Source: a virus. From it: DNA of 29,068 nt. A program made the position numbers and the translations under genes. Under the pieces are notes generated by a model. The model was given only the letters and a program-made list of their open reading frames with translations. It was not told the DNA's origin and did no database searches. The stretch lies in IMG/VR virus record IMGVR_UViG_3300042392_001069, positions 1 through 29,068 of that record; one strand, given 5' to 3'. This document shows positions 1,252-24,068 of this stretch, in pieces (the first letter of the stretch is position 1; every line of letters begins with the position of its first letter).

Positions 1252-4080
1252 ATGGCACGACGAGGTAGGTTCGGACGTTCGGCATCGGGTTCACAGAACC
1301 TGTCGTCGCTTGTCTATTCTCTGCTAAAGGAAGAGCGCAACAATCAAGAGACCACGATGTTGACGGCATACAAGAACAATATGATGTCCGGAAGCGCAGC
1401 TGGGTTGTTTACCTCTGACGGTACGACTCGTCCAGCAACGGCGGCAACACTGGTTGACTGGTACAAGGCTCAGGCCTCCGCTGCCGACGCCGTTGGCGAC
1501 TCAACTGGGGCGGAGAGATTCCGAACCCAGGCTGAAGAGTTCCGGATTCAGTCCCTTCGAGACATTGAGACTGTCCTGGACAATGCCTACAAGGCTGGTA
1601 ACTCCATTGACCTTTCACTTATTGGTGGTTCTGGGTCCGCTAAGATTGATGGTGCAGCGTACGAGAAGTGGATGAATACCATCCTTGGGGACGAGGGCAT
1701 GACCGTATCTGACAGGGAGCGACTAAAGAGCAAGCTCTATACCGTTTCTTACAATTACGCTGCCGAGAATATGGTGAACGGGTTTAACGAGAAGAAGTAT
1801 ACGGCCAACCAGCTTGTCAAATTCTACGATGCCGAACTTGTTCGAGCCCGAGCCAACGGACTTACGGCGACAAGCCAAACGTACCGGGACATCGTTCAGG
1901 CACGTGCCTCGGCCATCTCAAGGGCAAAGACCGACGCAGAGAACGCACGAGGGGAGGCCATTGAGAATGGAATGCGAGACGAGACTGACGCCATGGCGTC
2001 AGCCATTCAGAGGTTGGTTAAGCCAATCCTTGGCAACTACGTCTCTTCAACAGACGTTGTTGAGTCTCTCTCCAAAGACTTTGGCAAGGGTAATGGTGAC
2101 GATTGGCTCACTAGGTTCTCCAACATCGTCCAGTCATCCGGCATGGACTACTCAGCTATGTTTGACGCTGGCGCAAGCGCAAACGGATTGTCCGTTGAGG
2201 AAATGCGCTCCATCGCAGGCATCTTTGGGGACCTTTCAACCCAACTTGAAGAGCTAAAGAGTCAAGGCTATGGCGCCGATATTGGCAAGTGGATTACGTT
2301 TGCCGACGAAGTTTCAACTAAGTATACAAACGGCGCATTCGCGGCGTCAACGCGCCCCTACGTCACCTCATTCAACGGGGAATACGCAAAGGTGGGAGGT
2401 AGCATTGGTGTTCAATTCTCAGGTGAGCCAGGAGCAACTAGGGACGCCCTAAACCAGCTAGTAGGAAGCGTTGCCGGGGCCGGGTTTGAATCCAACGTAA
2501 CGGATAGCTCCACGATTGCTCAAGTAAACCAATATGGGTCAGGCTACATTGAGGGTCTTGTCCCAGGTAATCCTGCAATTAAGACCATTGGAGATCTCGT
2601 AGATTTTCTTTCCGCAAACGGAGCTACCGCCGGAATGGACAAGACAGATATTGCAAACGGAATTGGAGAGTGGCTGTTTGTAATGAAGAATAACCCTAAC
2701 GCTGCTACAAGCGGAGCAATCCCAAACGAGCTATACAACCTAGGGATTGCAGGTACCATGTCAGCTCTGGACAACGCTCTTGGCGGAGCCGGAAGCGTGA
2801 CCACCGGAGATATCCTTAGACTTTATATTGAGTCAACATATATCCCAAAATCAATTACTGACACAGTAGATCCAAACGGCAACCCAACCAGAGCAATGGC
2901 TTACAAGATGAACCCAAAGACTGGAGAGTTTACGTTCAGTGTCGTACCAAGCGCAAACGTAGGCAGCAAAGACTACGTAATCTCTACCGGGAAGAACGGG
3001 GACATCTACTACACCCAGTCGATCCCATTCAAGGGAGAAGACGGGCTTGTCAATGGAAAAAAGATTAGGTTTGTTCCTGTGCCGGGTGGTGGAAACTACG
3101 CTGGAGGAAACGATGCAAATGATCTAATCATTCTTGACTTTACTGCCGGCATGGGAAAGCCAGTTGCATTTACCTCAGCTCAAATTGAGAGCTTTACTAC
3201 TTGGTATTCTTCTCAGCCAAATGCAACGACTGGAGACTTCTCTGGGTTTAGGCTTGAGCCAGACGCATCAACACCTGGGATTATGAATTTCACCGCAGGA
3301 AATGATTTGCTTAGGGCACTTACGGCTACTGGTCTCTTTGGAACACCTGCTATTACTGACTGGATGAAGGCCGCAGGAATTAATCTAAAAGACGTACAGG
3401 TAACTAATGTTGGTGGAACGCTACTTCTTGGAGAAGATTTTCTTAGCGATTATAGAATGGAAATCTTCACTTCTGGGGCACAAGGTACAGACGCAAGAAA
3501 CGCTGTATCAAACTGGCTTAGGAAGAACAAGGGAATTACCGACCCAGGAGGGAAGATTCTTAACATGATCCTCAATGGTCTTGAGCTCAGCGCGGATCAG
3601 GGTGACGGAGGTTTGACGTGGAATATCTTTAAGGATGGCATCAGGTACACAAATAGTACTGACAACACCAAGGACAACCTTCCACCAGCTCCTGCCGGAT
3701 CTAAGCCCGACCCTAACGCTTTCGCCTCAACAGATCCTTCGTTTGGGATTAATGGAAACCCACAGCCAACAGCTCCTCTGGTTCAAAATGGGGCTGGCAT
3801 GGGCGGAACAGCCGGAGTCAGAGGCACTCAGACTGGAAAGTTTATTCCTACCTCTGACCTTATGGAGCATACCTTTAGGAACATTGCCCCATCTCTAACT
3901 CCAGTTGATCCAATTGCCCCACCTCCTGGGGGAAGGGCTCCTATTATTGGCCCTGGCCTAAATCCAGATGGTCCAGGAGTCACCGCACCAGCGGTATCGC
4001 CTGGGATTCCTAACAGCAAAGCACCAGGAGGCCCAAGCATGAGGCCATCTGATACGACGCGCAGAATGAGGAACTTGTAA
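1252..4080 (+). CDS. Large virion-associated protein, 942 aa, unknown function
   Basis: I do not recognise a family. The ATG follows GGAGG with a 6-nt gap, and the gene ends by sharing one base with the next ATG (TAATG). The N-terminal ~270 residues are helical and rich in Ala, Glu and Arg (for example around residues 75-115 and 170-255), with coiled-coil character. The middle (about 270-800) is mixed, rich in Gly, Asn and Thr, and the last ~130 residues are Pro/Gly-rich and probably disordered, ending in a basic RRMRNL-type tail. Its place between portal and scaffold suggests a protein packed in the head or attached to the portal, possibly ejected with DNA; this is inference. The third quarter (about 2820-3500) is visibly more A+T-rich than the flanks. 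There is no signal peptide, membrane segment or recognisable catalytic motif. Confidence 0.75.
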   Translation: MARRGRFGRSASGSQNLSSLVYSLLKEERNNQETTMLTAYKNNMMSGSAAGLFTSDGTTRPATAATLVDWYKAQASAADAVGDSTGAERFRTQAEEFRIQSLRDIETVLDNAYKAGNSIDLSLIGGSGSAKIDGAAYEKWMNTILGDEGMTVSDRERLKSKLYTVSYNYAAENMVNGFNEKKYTANQLVKFYDAELVRARANGLTATSQTYRDIVQARASAISRAKTDAENARGEAIENGMRDETDAMASAIQRLVKPILGNYVSSTDVVESLSKDFGKGNGDDWLTRFSNIVQSSGMDYSAMFDAGASANGLSVEEMRSIAGIFGDLSTQLEELKSQGYGADIGKWITFADEVSTKYTNGAFAASTRPYVTSFNGEYAKVGGSIGVQFSGEPGATRDALNQLVGSVAGAGFESNVTDSSTIAQVNQYGSGYIEGLVPGNPAIKTIGDLVDFLSANGATAGMDKTDIANGIGEWLFVMKNNPNAATSGAIPNELYNLGIAGTMSALDNALGGAGSVTTGDILRLYIESTYIPKSITDTVDPNGNPTRAMAYKMNPKTGEFTFSVVPSANVGSKDYVISTGKNGDIYYTQSIPFKGEDGLVNGKKIRFVPVPGGGNYAGGNDANDLIILDFTAGMGKPVAFTSAQIESFTTWYSSQPNATTGDFSGFRLEPDASTPGIMNFTAGNDLLRALTATGLFGTPAITDWMKAAGINLKDVQVTNVGGTLLLGEDFLSDYRMEIFTSGAQGTDARNAVSNWLRKNKGITDPGGKILNMILNGLELSADQGDGGLTWNIFKDGIRYTNSTDNTKDNLPPAPAGSKPDPNAFASTDPSFGINGNPQPTAPLVQNGAGMGGTAGVRGTQTGKFIPTSDLMEHTFRNIAPSLTPVDPIAPPPGGRAPIIGPGLNPDGPGVTAPAVSPGIPNSKAPGGPSMRPSDTTRRMRNL

Positions 4081-7000
4081 TGGTCCAAATTGGCGGTAGC
4101 ATCATTGATCCAACTCCACCGTACGATACTAGTCCGCAAAGCGGAAATGGTATTACTTCTCGAGAGCTGAACATTAAGGTAGGGTCAGACGGGACACTTA
4201 ACACTGGTAGGCTGCTGGATGTACCTAACTCTCTTTCACAAGGGGGAGATTCTAGCAACCCGCTAGACTACGCCGCCTCACTGCCATTCCGAGGTCTCGG
4301 CATGGCCGGTCAGGCCCTAGGCGCAGGAATCAAGGTTGGAGCAGACGTCATTGGCGCAAGCCCCCTTGGCTTTATTGCTAGCCAAAGGATTGGAGACGGA
4401 AGCGTGGGGGACGTCGTAGGAAATATTGGTAAAATCTTCCTTGACATTCTTGCCAAGCCTGGAGAGATGGTGCAAGACTTTGGCGCCATGCTGCGAGTTA
4501 AAACCGCGAACGGAACACTCCCTGCCGACATCCAGGCCATGGTTGATAGCGGCGCATCAGAAGAGAGTGTTATCCAGTATATGCGACAGACCGGAAGGTC
4601 TTTGGCAAACGACAGAACAGTCAACCTGGGACTGTCGCTCCTCCTTGACCCTCTCAACCTGACACCGTTTGCTCTTGGCAAAGTTAACCTGCTAAAGTCA
4701 ATAGGAAGGCTTGGAACAACGGGTGCAGGTATCGCCGCAGGCAGCATTGCTGGTCCAGTAGGCGCCGTAGCTGGTGGCGCTGCTGGATATTTCCTTGGCG
4801 GGAAAGTCGGGACAAAGATTGCGCAGCTGGGGTGGAAGGCTGGGGCCAAGACAATCTCAAAGGAGAGCGGCCTTGATCTAAGCGCAAAGGCTCGTGCTAT
4901 ACAAACCTTTGAGAAGTCTGGGGATGCCCTTCCGCCAGACCTAAACAGGGGCAGGTACCTTATTTATAACGAGATTGACAAGGCTATCTTTCGCCCAATG
5001 CGCAATGTTGCAGCCGGGGTAAAGGAAGGACTTAAGTTTAAGTCTGGTCAACTTCTTCTTAAGGCGCACGGCGCAAGCACTGTTGACGATTTCCACAAAG
5101 CAGCAGAGAGGGGCTTTGGTGCGGAGGTGGCAAAGCTTGGGTTGCGAAGGTTTGCTATCGCAAAGGTAAACTCTGTAATCCAGTCTGTATCTCGATCTAG
5201 GATTGGTGAGGTTGAGGCAACAGTTGATAACGTTGTAGAAAACGTTGACGCTGACATTAACAAGGCGCTCCAGGACTATAAGGACGCTAGGTACAATAAC
5301 GTTGACGACGCTACGTTCAATATGCTAACCGAATCAAGCGGAGGATCTCTTAAGTTCCCAGGCACAACTGACTATGTTCTTGCAAAACTTGCGGACAGCG
5401 CTGGTGAACTTGGGCTTGAAGTTAAGTACGGCATGAGCCGAGAAGAAATCATTGCATTTATGCAGGACGCTTCTCCTGGTTACGGACCAAGAACGGACCC
5501 AGGAAGCGGCTTGCGTATTGTTGACGAAACAACGACCAAGCAGGCTGCAAAGAATCGTCTACGAAATAGGCTTTTGCAGTCCCGAATGGACACGGAGCTA
5601 GTTGGTTATGACCCAGTTCAGGATGCAGTTAGGGCAGCATCTACAAACATGGACATGATTGACAACGGTCTTCTTGACGAGATCGCCTTGGAGGTTAGGA
5701 AAGAGGCAGAGTACGTGGGAATTGCCGGCCCTACTCCAGGTACTAGCTCTAGGGCCGCCTCTAAGCGTGCCTTAATGTACGCAGAGAGGCTTGCCAATGA
5801 TCTTGCCAACGCCTCCTCTGACGATGTTGCTAGGTCTGCAGGGAGAATAGAGGCAACACCAGCCCAAATTGGTATTATTCTTGAGGAATTCTTCGGTGGC
5901 GCAAGGCTAACCGATGAGGGCTTGGTAGTAGGCGGAAAATACTTTGACGAGGCGGGTCAATTGTCGTCAGCTGCTAACATTTCACGGCAGCTTTCGCAGA
6001 AGTTTGCCTTTGCCCGGTCAACGTCGTATGGCTTCAACATCAACAGGATGGGGAACGTAAGGCGCGTACTCCACGTAGCGTCACTCTTTGAGAAGGCGAC
6101 GCTCCGCGAAAAAGACGGTTACGCAAAGGATATCAGCAAGGCTCTCGGTAAGCCCATCACTGTTAGGGAGTTGGAGCAGATAGTTCCAGTACTTAAAGAG
6201 CTTGGGGACCCAGCTGCTTATGCCAGGCCAACGTTTGTGAAGTCAACCAGCTTAATTGACACCAAGGTTGAGCAATGGCTTGCTATGTTTGACAATCTTG
6301 GTCAAGAGGGGGGACTAGTCGCCAGCCAGTACCCAGACGTCCCTCAGGCAGTTATTGCGCAACTTAATAAGGCCAGGGCTGGGAACCCAGCATCGGCGGC
6401 TGCTGAGACTAAGAAAGTTTGGGCAACCCAGGCCGCAGCGGCGTTTGAAGACGTCGCCGCGCATCAGCCAGGATACCAGCTATCGTCAGGGACTGTATCC
6501 GCACAGCAGGTAAAAGACTTCCTTACTGCTGCAAAGACATCTAGCTCAACTACGGCTAGGGCTACTCCTAAGGAGCTAGCGGCAATTAGGTCTGCTTGGA
6601 AGGCCTTAACCGGGAGTTCAGATGAGATTGACGGAATTATTGCGGCGGCAAGAAGGGACGGCTACGAGCTAGGGATTGCCCCAGCGGACAACGTTATTCG
6701 AGAGCCTAGACTTATTGCCACTGTTGAGAGGCAGGGACTTGCAGTTCCCGAGGTTGCGACAATTGATAGACCATTTATTGATATCACCTCAGAGTTTGTT
6801 GATGGTCTTCCAGATTTTTCCAACAGGCAGTCGTACAAGGTTGGCGGTATTAGGGGGGCAATTCAGTCCATGATGGCACCTCTGCCACAGTCTCTCGTAT
6901 CCTCATCTGCCGTGCAAAGGTTGCAGCTAACTCTTAGAAATAGATTTACCGTTGACGAGATTGACGAGTTTAACCGGAGGATCACAACTAGGGCGGTTGA

Positions 7001-22288: not shown

Positions 22289-22537
22289 ATGAGCGCGAAG
22301 GTTACACAGGAAAGCAACGACACTCTGAGGGTAAACATTGAGGTCGACTGCCCATGCGAGGTGGGGATCTGCGAGCACTCCATGAAGGAGGTTAGCAAGG
22401 CCCTGCAGCAGGCGTACACTCGTGGCGTGCGAGATGGGGCTACTGGCGCGATGGAAAACGTCAAGCATTACCTCAAGAAGGAATACCCTAGCGAGTTCTC
22501 TCAGGCGGAGAAGGACTCTAAAAAGCTGGCAAATTGA
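22289..22537 (+). CDS. Unknown 82-aa protein with Cys pair
   Basis: A small gene right after the helicase, with AAGGGGG upstream of its ATG. The product has a CPCEVGICEH cluster (about residues 21-30; three Cys and one His), which could bind one zinc ion, then a helical, Lys-rich C-terminus (about 35-82). No family recognised. It could be a helicase accessory protein. It ends overlapping the next TTG start. Confidence 0.6.
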   Translation: MSAKVTQESNDTLRVNIEVDCPCEVGICEHSMKEVSKALQQAYTRGVRDGATGAMENVKHYLKKEYPSEFSQAEKDSKKLAN

Positions 22538-22923
22538 TTTCGCTACTACTCTCCCTGACTCTCTTTGTGACCCAGCCTAGCGGGTACCACGAGAGGGTTA
22601 GGGCGACGTGGTACGGCAACACGCACCCACACAGCCAGAAGTACTGCTACCAGGGGTACAGGAACACGTGCAACCCATACAGCAAGGGCGAGAAGGTTAT
22701 GTACGCGGCAGTTCCAGGGTTCAGGTGGGGCGACAAACCGTACAAGGCAAACGTGTGCTACAATGGCAAGTGCGTGACGGTCGTTGTACGCGACTGTCTG
22801 TGCAGCCGAACGGGAGAGTACATGGACCTCTCCCCGGCAGCATTCATTGCGCTAGGCGGAAAGCTGAGTAGGGGTGTGATATGGGTAACGGTGAACTACG
22901 ACACGAACCGTGGCGGACGCTAA
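22534..22923 (+). CDS. Exported RlpA-like double-psi beta-barrel protein
   Basis: A 129-aa protein with an N-terminal hydrophobic signal (MISLLLSLTLFVTQ). The rest matches an RlpA-like/expansin-type DPBB: ATWYG (24-28), MYAAVPGF (57-63), VVVRDCLC with R86-D87, YMDLSPAAF with D98, and a closing VIWVTV strand. RlpA proteins cleave or bind naked glycan strands of peptidoglycan. Six or seven Cys may form disulfides, consistent with export. The TTG start overlaps the previous TGA and the RBS is weak, so expression is probably low. It could assist lysis or modify the wall during infection. The end overlaps the methyltransferase start by 43 nt. Confidence 0.68.
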   Translation: MISLLLSLTLFVTQPSGYHERVRATWYGNTHPHSQKYCYQGYRNTCNPYSKGEKVMYAAVPGFRWGDKPYKANVCYNGKCVTVVVRDCLCSRTGEYMDLSPAAFIALGGKLSRGVIWVTVNYDTNRGGR

Positions 22924-23915
22924 CCAACGCATCGTTCTTCTCAGGGGTAGGAGGGATGGATCTTGGATTTGAAAGAGCAGGAATCAAAACAGTCAGCTTC
23001 AGCGAAATTGAGCCGTATCAGAGCGAAGTCCTCGCCAGAAACTGGCCAGGAGTACCGAACCTCGGAGACATCGTCGCTCTCGCAGATAGTGAGCTTTCCA
23101 AGCAGGTACAGCAGACAACCAACGAAGTTCAACGACGTGGCGGACACACTGACGATCAGTGCGGGACCTCCGGCTGTAGCAAGTGGCAGCATGCTGACAT
23201 CTTCTCCGGAGGATTCCCATGCCAAGACCTCAGCGCAGCTGGTGCCAGAAGGGGATTTGAAGGAGAGCGATCCGTCCTCGCCTTCACCTACCTTGACCTT
23301 GTGGAACTCTACAGACCTGCCTGGCTGGTGCTGGAAAACGTCCCAGGCCTACTCCATTCGTCTGGCGGACGTGACTTCGCCAGGCTCATTAGTGAAATGG
23401 AAGAACTCGGGTATGGCGTGGCGTGGAGAGTGCTGGACGCGCAATACTTCGGAGTCCCCCAAAGACGCCGTCGTGTCTTCATTGTGGCAAGTCTTGGATC
23501 AGACCGTGCCGGCGAAGTACTTTTTGAGTGCGAAGGCGGCTGCAGGCATACTGCGCAGGACGCTCAAGAGGAAGCAAGGGCAGAAGCTGCCGCCCATGTT
23601 GACCGACGTACTGTCTCAAATCTCAACGCAAGCAAATCAGGATGGCGTATCGGGGCCGAGGACGCCGCAGGGGGGCACCTCATCTTGGGCACGGAGGATG
23701 ACGCCAGTGGAATGCGAGCGTCTGATGGGGTGGCCGGACGGGTGGACAGTCAGCCCCCAGTGGCGGGGGAAACGCCGCTCTACGGGGCGGAAATAGGCCT
23801 CTACGACGATTCTACCGATGGGTTGGACACAAAAAGGTACACCTGCTGCGGAAACGGGGTCGTGTCTAGCGTTGCCGAGTGGGTCGCCCGGAGGATCGTA
23901 GCTTGCCAGGAGTAA
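22881..23915 (+). CDS. C5-cytosine DNA methyltransferase (motif IX missing from this frame)
   Basis: A 344-aa SAM-dependent enzyme that methylates cytosine C5. Motif I FSGVGGMDLGF (20-30), motif IV with catalytic Cys114 (GGFPCQDLS), motif VI ENV (152-154), motif VIII QRRRR (194-198) and motif X GNGVVSSVAEW (324-334) are all in this frame. A ~35-residue insert precedes motif IV. The expected motif IX (RR-M/L-TPxECExLMG) is not here; it is read in the +1 frame at 23692-23748, next to G6 (23670-23675), C5 (23754-23758) and G5 (23765-23769) runs. Either two indels have displaced it, or the second frame supplies it. The methylation may protect phage DNA from host restriction. It is the last + strand gene before the terminator. 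Confidence 0.82.
   Translation: MGNGELRHEPWRTLTNASFFSGVGGMDLGFERAGIKTVSFSEIEPYQSEVLARNWPGVPNLGDIVALADSELSKQVQQTTNEVQRRGGHTDDQCGTSGCSKWQHADIFSGGFPCQDLSAAGARRGFEGERSVLAFTYLDLVELYRPAWLVLENVPGLLHSSGGRDFARLISEMEELGYGVAWRVLDAQYFGVPQRRRRVFIVASLGSDRAGEVLFECEGGCRHTAQDAQEEARAEAAAHVDRRTVSNLNASKSGWRIGAEDAAGGHLILGTEDDASGMRASDGVAGRVDSQPPVAGETPLYGAEIGLYDDSTDGLDTKRYTCCGNGVVSSVAEWVARRIVACQE
22963..23796 (+). CDS. Overlapping +1-frame ORF inside the methyltransferase gene
   Basis: A 277-codon open frame lies entirely within the methyltransferase gene; an internal ATG at 23191 is an alternative start. Its product contains YFLSAKAAAGILRR (around nt 23520-23561), which I remember as recurring in phage proteins annotated as methyltransferase fragments, and a full C5-methyltransferase motif IX (RRMTPVECERLMGWPDGWT) at nt 23692-23748. 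An overlap this long with two meaningful segments is unlikely to be a chance shadow. It may be a dual-coding second protein, a C-terminal methyltransferase half, or the product of frameshift. No good RBS precedes either start. Confidence 0.4.
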   Translation: MDLKEQESKQSASAKLSRIRAKSSPETGQEYRTSETSSLSQIVSFPSRYSRQPTKFNDVADTLTISAGPPAVASGSMLTSSPEDSHAKTSAQLVPEGDLKESDPSSPSPTLTLWNSTDLPGWCWKTSQAYSIRLADVTSPGSLVKWKNSGMAWRGECWTRNTSESPKDAVVSSLWQVLDQTVPAKYFLSAKAAAGILRRTLKRKQGQKLPPMLTDVLSQISTQANQDGVSGPRTPQGGTSSWARRMTPVECERLMGWPDGWTVSPQWRGKRRSTGRK

Positions 23916-23927
23916 TATTTTTTCCCC

Positions 23928-23997
23928 CCGTCGGGCATGGCGTGATAGTACCGTAGGCTCGACCCCCGTCGGGCACGAGGCGCCCTCCGTCGGGCAT
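23928..23997 (+). repeat. Three-copy cluster of CCGTCGGGCAT repeats
   Basis: CCGTCGGGCAT occurs at 23928-23938 and 23987-23997, and CCGTCGGGCAC at 23966-23976, spaced 38 and 21 nt apart, all on the + strand. Two copies sit in CCCCCGTCGGG, a near-perfect CCCG-T-CGGG palindrome. They fill the gap between the methyltransferase stop and the convergent terminator. Matching copies stand beyond the other end of the - strand cassette (29018-29063). Confidence 0.75.
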
Positions 23998-24028
23998 AGG
24001 GGGCGCGTTTACTGGCCGGTTAATTAAT

Positions 24029-24068
24029 CTCCTCACCAGCCGCTATTAGCAGCTGGTGAGGAGTTTTT
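24029..24068 (+). terminator. Rho-independent terminator between convergent gene blocks
   Basis: CTCCTCACCAGC (24029-24040) pairs perfectly with GCTGGTGAGGAG (24052-24063), an 11-nt loop in between, followed by TTTTTG (24064-24069): a textbook intrinsic terminator for the + strand operon ending with the methyltransferase. On the - strand the hairpin also follows the last cassette gene, where it could slow convergent transcription. Confidence 0.9.

What the first reader, a model, noticed from the sequence alone, without database searches (positions are those of the whole stretch)
22963..23796. C5-methyltransferase motif IX is read in an overlapping +1 frame
Frame 0 (22881-23915) has motifs I, IV, VI, VIII and X, but motif IX (RRMTPVECERLMGWPDGWT) is encoded at 23692-23748 in the +1 frame. 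That frame is open for 277 codons inside the gene and also has a YFLSAKAAAGILRR block. Homopolymer runs (G6 at 23670-23675, C5 at 23754-23758, G5 at 23765-23769) flank the motif. Explanations: (a) two compensating indels, real or assembly errors; (b) genuine dual coding, which I recall as recurrent in phage C5-methyltransferases; (c) programmed frameshift yielding a complete enzyme.
Basis: partly seen in the sequence, partly recalled or inferred. Interest (0 to 1): 0.85.

Follow-up and report, generated by a model that had tools for sequence, protein, structure and literature searches.

The report
Two-part phage methyltransferase, overlapping reading frames
One stretch of phage DNA encodes two different proteins in two overlapping reading frames, and together they probably make up one DNA-methylating enzyme; relatives show that pieces of the target-recognition part have moved from one reading frame to the other.

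Summary
Frame 0 (22881-23915, "alpha") has C5-methyltransferase motifs I-VIII and X. Frame +1 (22963-23796, "beta") has motif IX and a conserved YFLSAKAAAGILRR domain. About 100 viral loci from many samples show the same split. Substitution patterns show selection on both frames, alternating along the gene. Frame 0 stays open across the motif IX region in 48 of 48 relatives, against 6% expected. Beta has its own start signal: AGGAGG at 22949-22954, 8 nt before TTG 22963, conserved in all 16 rows of this clade examined. So two proteins are made, not one frameshifted protein. The closest known case is M.EcoHK31I, whose small subunit carries only motif IX. New here: a ~31-aa segment lying at the target-recognition position of alpha in relatives is encoded in beta's frame in this clade, and alpha has lost that region. 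A second lineage has a different +1-frame segment at the same place. The YFLS ORF overlaps C5-methyltransferases in many bacterial phyla and named phages, usually unannotated. Activity and specificity are untested.

The parts
22881..23915 (+). alpha: C5-methyltransferase catalytic subunit, frame 0; motifs I-VIII and X; no motif IX
   Evidence: Pfam DNA_methylase 3.5e-50 over residues 17-208 only; alpha model aligns to M.HhaI 10-323 (Z 17.6, 175 residues), with 217-325 at pLDDT under 50
22963..23796 (+). beta: overlapping +1-frame ORF, 277 aa; N-terminal TRD-position segment, YFLS domain, motif IX
   Evidence: conserved full length in relatives; substitution classes; synonymous-shuffle control
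22949..22954 (+). AGGAGG Shine-Dalgarno for beta, 8 nt before TTG; lies inside the motif I codons (FSGVGG)
   Evidence: anti-SD duplex -10.7 kcal/mol; -9.3 or stronger in 16 of 16 rows of this clade
22963..22965 (+). TTG, most likely start codon of beta
   Evidence: SD spacing; the +1 frame downstream is under constraint from about 23055
23191..23193 (+). ATG, alternative or internal start of beta (201 aa); position of the SD-led ATG used in other lineages
   Evidence: weak SD here (-2.1); the equivalent ATG has -10.8 in most other lineages
22935..22955 (+). alpha motif I (FFSGVGG)
   Evidence: translation and alignment
23089..23181 (+). beta segment VSFPSRYSRQPTKFNDVADTLTISAGPPAVA; in relatives the same segment is in alpha's frame 0 downstream of the motif IX region
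   Evidence: profile E 1e-15 to 1e-20 to frame-0 copies in a dozen relatives; SN 0.007 against NS 0.141
23208..23225 (+). alpha motif IV (GGFPCQ, catalytic cysteine)
23329..23571 (+). beta YFLS domain (CWKTSQ ... KYFLSAKAAAGILRRTLKR)
23334..23342 (+). alpha motif VI (ENV)
23460..23474 (+). alpha motif VIII (QRRRR)
23692..23748 (+). motif IX (RRMTPVECERLMGWPDGWT), in beta
23850..23864 (+). motif X core (GNGVV), in alpha
   Evidence: helix 325-343 confidently modelled

Best explanation
The locus encodes a two-subunit C5-cytosine DNA methyltransferase by true dual coding. Alpha (frame 0) is the large catalytic lobe: AdoMet site, PCQ and ENV catalytic loops, motif VIII and the C-terminal motif X helix. 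Beta (+1 frame, TTG start with its own ribosome-binding site inside the motif I codons) supplies the missing small lobe: motif IX, the YFLS domain and, in this clade, a segment that sits at the target-recognition position. The two proteins are translated independently from one mRNA and are inferred to assemble into an enzyme that methylates the phage's own DNA. Shown from sequence: both frames under selection as proteins, motif partition, conserved start signal. Inferred: assembly, need for both subunits, methylation, and that the 31-aa segment contacts the target.
For: Same split in about 100 viral loci, none in the clade with IX in frame 0. Frame-0-synonymous changes that alter beta run at 0.28-0.29 per site outside the overlap, 0.08-0.16 inside and 0.009 in the motif IX segment, where beta-synonymous changes run at 0.14. 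The dominant frame alternates: 23055-23204 and 23505-23804 are mostly beta-led, the rest alpha-led. No stop-creating change in the +1 frame inside the overlap, but 29 just beyond beta's stop. Frame 0 open in 48 of 48 relatives against 6% in beta-preserving shuffles. Real YFLS and IX profile scores far above alpha-preserving shuffles in nearly all of 34 loci scored (L020 weakest). SD and start conserved: motif I AGGAGG-TTG in this clade, SD-ATG before motif IV in other lineages. The alpha model covers M.HhaI's large lobe and motif X, with 217-325 below pLDDT 50.
Against: No expression, mass-spectrometry or methylation data. Beta's model is poor (mean pLDDT 43.6), so its fit to the small lobe is not shown by structure. 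In most bacterial and cultured-phage relatives alpha keeps motif IX and the YFLS ORF still overlaps it, so the YFLS domain has a role that is not explained by motif IX alone. TTG is a less common start; ATG 23191 could be used as well.
Confidence: 0.87

Rival explanations
1. Programmed ribosomal frameshifting: a +1 shift after motif VIII and a shift back after motif IX give one full-length enzyme.
For: Motif order along the mRNA is I-VIII, IX, X, so a double shift would restore a canonical order.
Against: Frame 0 is kept open through the motif IX region (48 of 48 against 6%) and the +1 frame is kept open and constrained far upstream of any useful shift; beta has a conserved SD and start. Two opposite shifts in one pass would be inefficient. 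In L020/L021 the overlapping ORF carries motif X too, which fits subunits better.
Confidence: 0.05
2. Two compensating indels, as sequencing or assembly errors or a decayed gene.
For: Homopolymers flank motif IX.
Against: The same frames recur in about 100 loci from many metagenomes, some below 50% beta identity, with purifying selection in both frames.
Confidence: 0.01
3. Only beta's C-terminal part (from ATG 23191) is a protein; the 22963-23190 part of the +1 frame is a by-product.
For: Most other lineages start beta at the equivalent ATG.
Against: In this clade that ATG has lost its SD, the motif I TTG has gained one, and 23055-23204 evolves as a +1-frame protein (SN 0.036-0.088 against NS 0.106-0.155).
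Confidence: 0.1
4. Beta is not a methyltransferase subunit but a separate phage protein (for example an anti-restriction or host-interaction factor) that happens to overlap.
For: The YFLS ORF also overlaps C5-methyltransferases that have all motifs in frame 0.
Against: Alpha lacks motif IX here, and motif IX, a methyltransferase motif, is in beta; a segment found in alpha of relatives is in beta here.
Confidence: 0.07

Closest known systems
M.EcoHK31I (YGGCCR; and, from memory, M.EaeI)
   Same: Two polypeptides; large one with motifs I-VIII and X, small one with motif IX only (PMC3404938; naturally split, PMC3439449). From memory (Lee, Kam and Shaw 1995, not held): the small subunit is encoded in another frame inside the large subunit's gene.
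   Different: There the predicted target-recognition domain is in the large subunit. Here alpha's region between VIII and X is short, with no such segment left, and the segment that holds that place in relatives is in beta. Phage-borne; no restriction enzyme recognised near it.
M.AquI (CYCGRG)
   Same: Two-polypeptide C5-methyltransferase; large subunit with I-VIII.
   Different: In AquI the small subunit has IX and X and half of the variable region; here X stays in alpha. Relatives L020/L021 and probably L185 come closer to the AquI order.
Streptococcus phage MM1 orf13/orf14, annotated 'C5 methyltransferase alpha/beta subunit' (DQ113772)
   Same: Beta ORF with the YFLS domain inside alpha in the +1 frame.
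   Different: In MM1 motif IX is in alpha's frame, and the beta ORF ends before it.
ShiLan-type out-of-frame HNH endonuclease in phage methylases (PMC11855218)
   Same: Alternative-frame ORF inside a phage methylase gene.
   Different: That is a mobile insertion encoding an endonuclease; here both frames encode methyltransferase parts.

Membership tests
C5-cytosine DNA methyltransferase (PF00145) | Motifs I, IV (PCQ), VI (ENV), VIII, X with the large-domain fold | tested here: met
   Pfam 3.5e-50; M.HhaI alignment Z 17.6
C5-cytosine DNA methyltransferase (PF00145) | Motif IX | tested here: met
   Present, but in beta: residues 204-267 match the C-terminal part of PF00145, E 0.0004, just under the curated cut-off
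M.EcoHK31I-type two-polypeptide methyltransferase | Large subunit I-VIII and X, small subunit motif IX only of the conserved motifs | tested here: met
M.EcoHK31I-type two-polypeptide methyltransferase | Small-subunit gene in another frame within the large-subunit gene (feature recalled) | tested here: met
M.EcoHK31I-type two-polypeptide methyltransferase | Target-recognition domain in the large subunit (PMC3404938) | tested here: not met
   The VIII-X region of alpha is short and lacks the segment, which is in beta. Other relatives (L041, L049, L094) keep a long variable region in alpha.
M.EcoHK31I-type two-polypeptide methyltransferase | Sequence homology to EcoHK31I alpha and beta | not testable with these tools
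   Its sequence was not found by name in the collections
M.EcoHK31I-type two-polypeptide methyltransferase | Both proteins needed for methylation in vitro | not testable with these tools
   Needs expression
M.AquI-type | Motifs IX and X in the small subunit | tested here: not met
   X is in alpha

The most novel reading that the evidence does not exclude
DNA-target recognition is itself carried by the overprinted frame and is modular: pieces of the recognition region move between the two reading frames of one gene (alpha's variable region to beta's N-terminus), at least twice at the same insertion point between motifs III and IV, so that the overlapping frame serves as a docking place for specificity.
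Probability: 0.45. Interest if true: 0.78.

Novelty: new variant of a known kind. Interest (0 to 1): 0.64.

Why it matters
It is a clear natural case of two halves of one enzyme encoded in overlapping frames, with enough relatives to read which frame leads at each place and how a motif and a recognition-position segment changed frame. Gene callers and annotators miss the second protein: of the annotated named-phage records examined here only MM1 annotates it, so these methyltransferases look defective or get wrong specificity predictions. Cloning alpha alone would probably give an inactive enzyme. The YFLS overlapping ORF, found in the +1 frame of C5-methyltransferases in many phyla, is an old overlapping gene that deserves a family name and a function.

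Tried and rejected
Structure of beta: AlphaFold gave mean pLDDT 43.6, so no fold search was run on it. Pfam and NCBIfam see only motif IX in beta; PHROGs has a YFLS-like family (phrog_16143, 'DNA methyltransferase'). Openness of the +1 frame alone is weak evidence (shuffled runs up to 215 codons here and longer in other loci), so profile scores and substitution classes were used instead. The 1995 EcoHK31I paper is not held. Paper searches for earlier reports of phage methyltransferases with motif IX in an overlapping frame found only the EcoHK31I/AquI mentions; most subscription papers are not in that library, so an earlier report cannot be excluded. Plasmid search: mostly P1-like records annotated Dam-family. 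A combined alpha-beta complex could not be modelled with the tools.

Full report
What is there. The window is a 29-kb virus record. Frame 0 at 22881-23915 encodes a 344-aa C5-cytosine methyltransferase whose Pfam match stops after motif VIII (residues 17-208) and which has a motif X (CCGNGVV) at its end. The +1 frame is open at 22963-23796 and contains motif IX at 23692-23748 and a conserved YFLSAKAAAGILRR domain.

Not an error. tblastn-confirmed relatives in viral contigs cover both frames. In 89 loci motif IX is in the +1 frame with the YFLS domain and motif X is in frame 0; in 11 more motif X was not scored or the contig ends (some contigs were fetched twice, so distinct contigs are fewer; 58 beta sequences remained after redundancy removal, three of them the MM1, Dove and Rctr41k comparison records). 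No member of the clade has motif IX in frame 0. The homopolymers therefore do not mark indels.

Two selected proteins. For eight close relatives I classified each single change as synonymous or not in each frame. Frame-0-synonymous, beta-altering changes (SN): 0.29 and 0.28 per site in the alpha-only flanks, 0.12, 0.16 and 0.08 in the overlap, 0.009 at 23681-23795 (motif IX and tail). There the reverse class (NS: alpha-altering, beta-synonymous) is 0.14. Sliding windows show the leading frame switching: alpha up to 23054, beta 23055-23204, alpha 23205-23504 (motifs IV-VIII), beta 23505-23654 and 23730-23804 with a mixed window between them, alpha beyond. Six sister pairs on separate paths give the same picture, though more weakly at motif IX (SN 0.049, NS 0.114). 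Pair counts in the larger set are not independent. With alpha held fixed and codons shuffled, the +1 frame loses the YFLS and IX profiles (156.5 to a maximum of 78; 59.5 to a maximum of 15.7).

Not a frameshift product. With beta held fixed and codons shuffled, frame 0 stays open from the YFLS motif to beta's stop in 6% of shuffles on average, yet it is open in 48 of 48 relatives (these relatives are not independent of one another). So ribosomes must be able to read frame 0 through the motif IX region. Conversely, +1 stops are absent inside the overlap and appear right after beta's end (SX 0 against 29 changes). Beta has its own start signal. In this clade it is AGGAGG 8 nt before TTG 22963, built into the motif I codons (GVGG), with anti-SD energy -9.3 or stronger in 16 of 16 rows. 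In other lineages motif I is mostly written with codons that give no such site, and an SD-led ATG lies before motif IV instead (GGAGGT...ATGAC, mostly -10.8).

How it likely works. [quoted passage not shown] PMC5944983). Alpha's model matches M.HhaI 10-323 over 175 residues (Z 17.6, rmsd 2.9) with the motif X helix in place, while residues 217-325 have pLDDT under 50. Alpha is thus a large lobe and beta is inferred to supply the small lobe. This partition is shown at sequence level only; assembly and activity are inferred.

A recognition-position segment changed frame. In a dozen relatives alpha carries, in frame 0 downstream of the motif IX region, (I/V)SFPSxYSRQPTKFNDxADPLTxSAGAPAV. In this clade the same segment is in beta at 23089-23181 (+1 frame, between alpha motifs III and IV), with profile E-values of 1e-15 to 1e-20 to the frame-0 copies, 60-70% nucleotide identity, and clear +1-frame evolution (SN 0.007, NS 0.141 in sister pairs). 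The window's alpha no longer has such a region. L057/L076, in another branch, carry a different +1-frame segment at the same place (SN 0 changes, NS 11). That these segments read the DNA target is an inference from position. The direction of the move (alpha to beta) is also inferred, from the wider spread of the frame-0 form.

Evolution. In genome and phage records the YFLS ORF lies in the +1 frame of a C5-methyltransferase in nearly every locus scored, across Proteobacteria, Firmicutes, Actinobacteria, spirochaetes and others, but alpha there mostly keeps motif IX in frame 0. On a tree of the catalytic core the +1 motif IX loci form one main group (33 rows, SH-aLRT 97, including L020, where the motif IX hit lies on another frame); a few others (such as L110) stand outside it. 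So an old overlapping ORF probably captured motif IX later. In this group motif IX lies upstream of alpha's variable region, not downstream as in ordinary enzymes. The genome scan used motif IX patterns, so frequencies are biased.

Comparison. It works like M.EcoHK31I, known since 1995, and differs in where the recognition segment lies; I therefore call it a variant, not a member. An AquI-like order (X, and in L185 IX, in the overlapping ORF) occurs in L020/L021 and L185. Phage MM1 is the only annotated record seen that names alpha and beta subunits.

Noticed in passing
L107-L184 and L186-L194 (bacterial genomes and named phages): The YFLS +1-frame ORF overlaps C5-methyltransferases that mostly already have all motifs in frame 0, across many phyla, and is usually unannotated; what it does there is unknown.
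   Followed up: partly
L020/L021 (about 2922-4336); L185 (1190-3045): AquI-like order: alpha ends after motif VIII, the overlapping ORF runs on and carries motif X (L020/L021) or motif IX (L185).
   Followed up: partly
L057 and L076, 5' part of beta: A different +1-frame segment (KAFEPASSMDENWTER...SLRANASKSFQVMIVGE) at the same place where this clade has the SFPS segment.
   Followed up: partly
23920-24066: After alpha: three copies of CCGTCGGGCA, then an inverted repeat (CTCCTCACCAGC...GCTGGTGAGGAG) followed by a T run between convergent genes, probably a terminator.
   Followed up: no
22534-22923: Gene with a weak DPBB (RlpA-like) Pfam match, TTG start, overlapping alpha's start by 43 nt, so three reading frames are used within about 90 bases at 22881-22965.
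   Followed up: no
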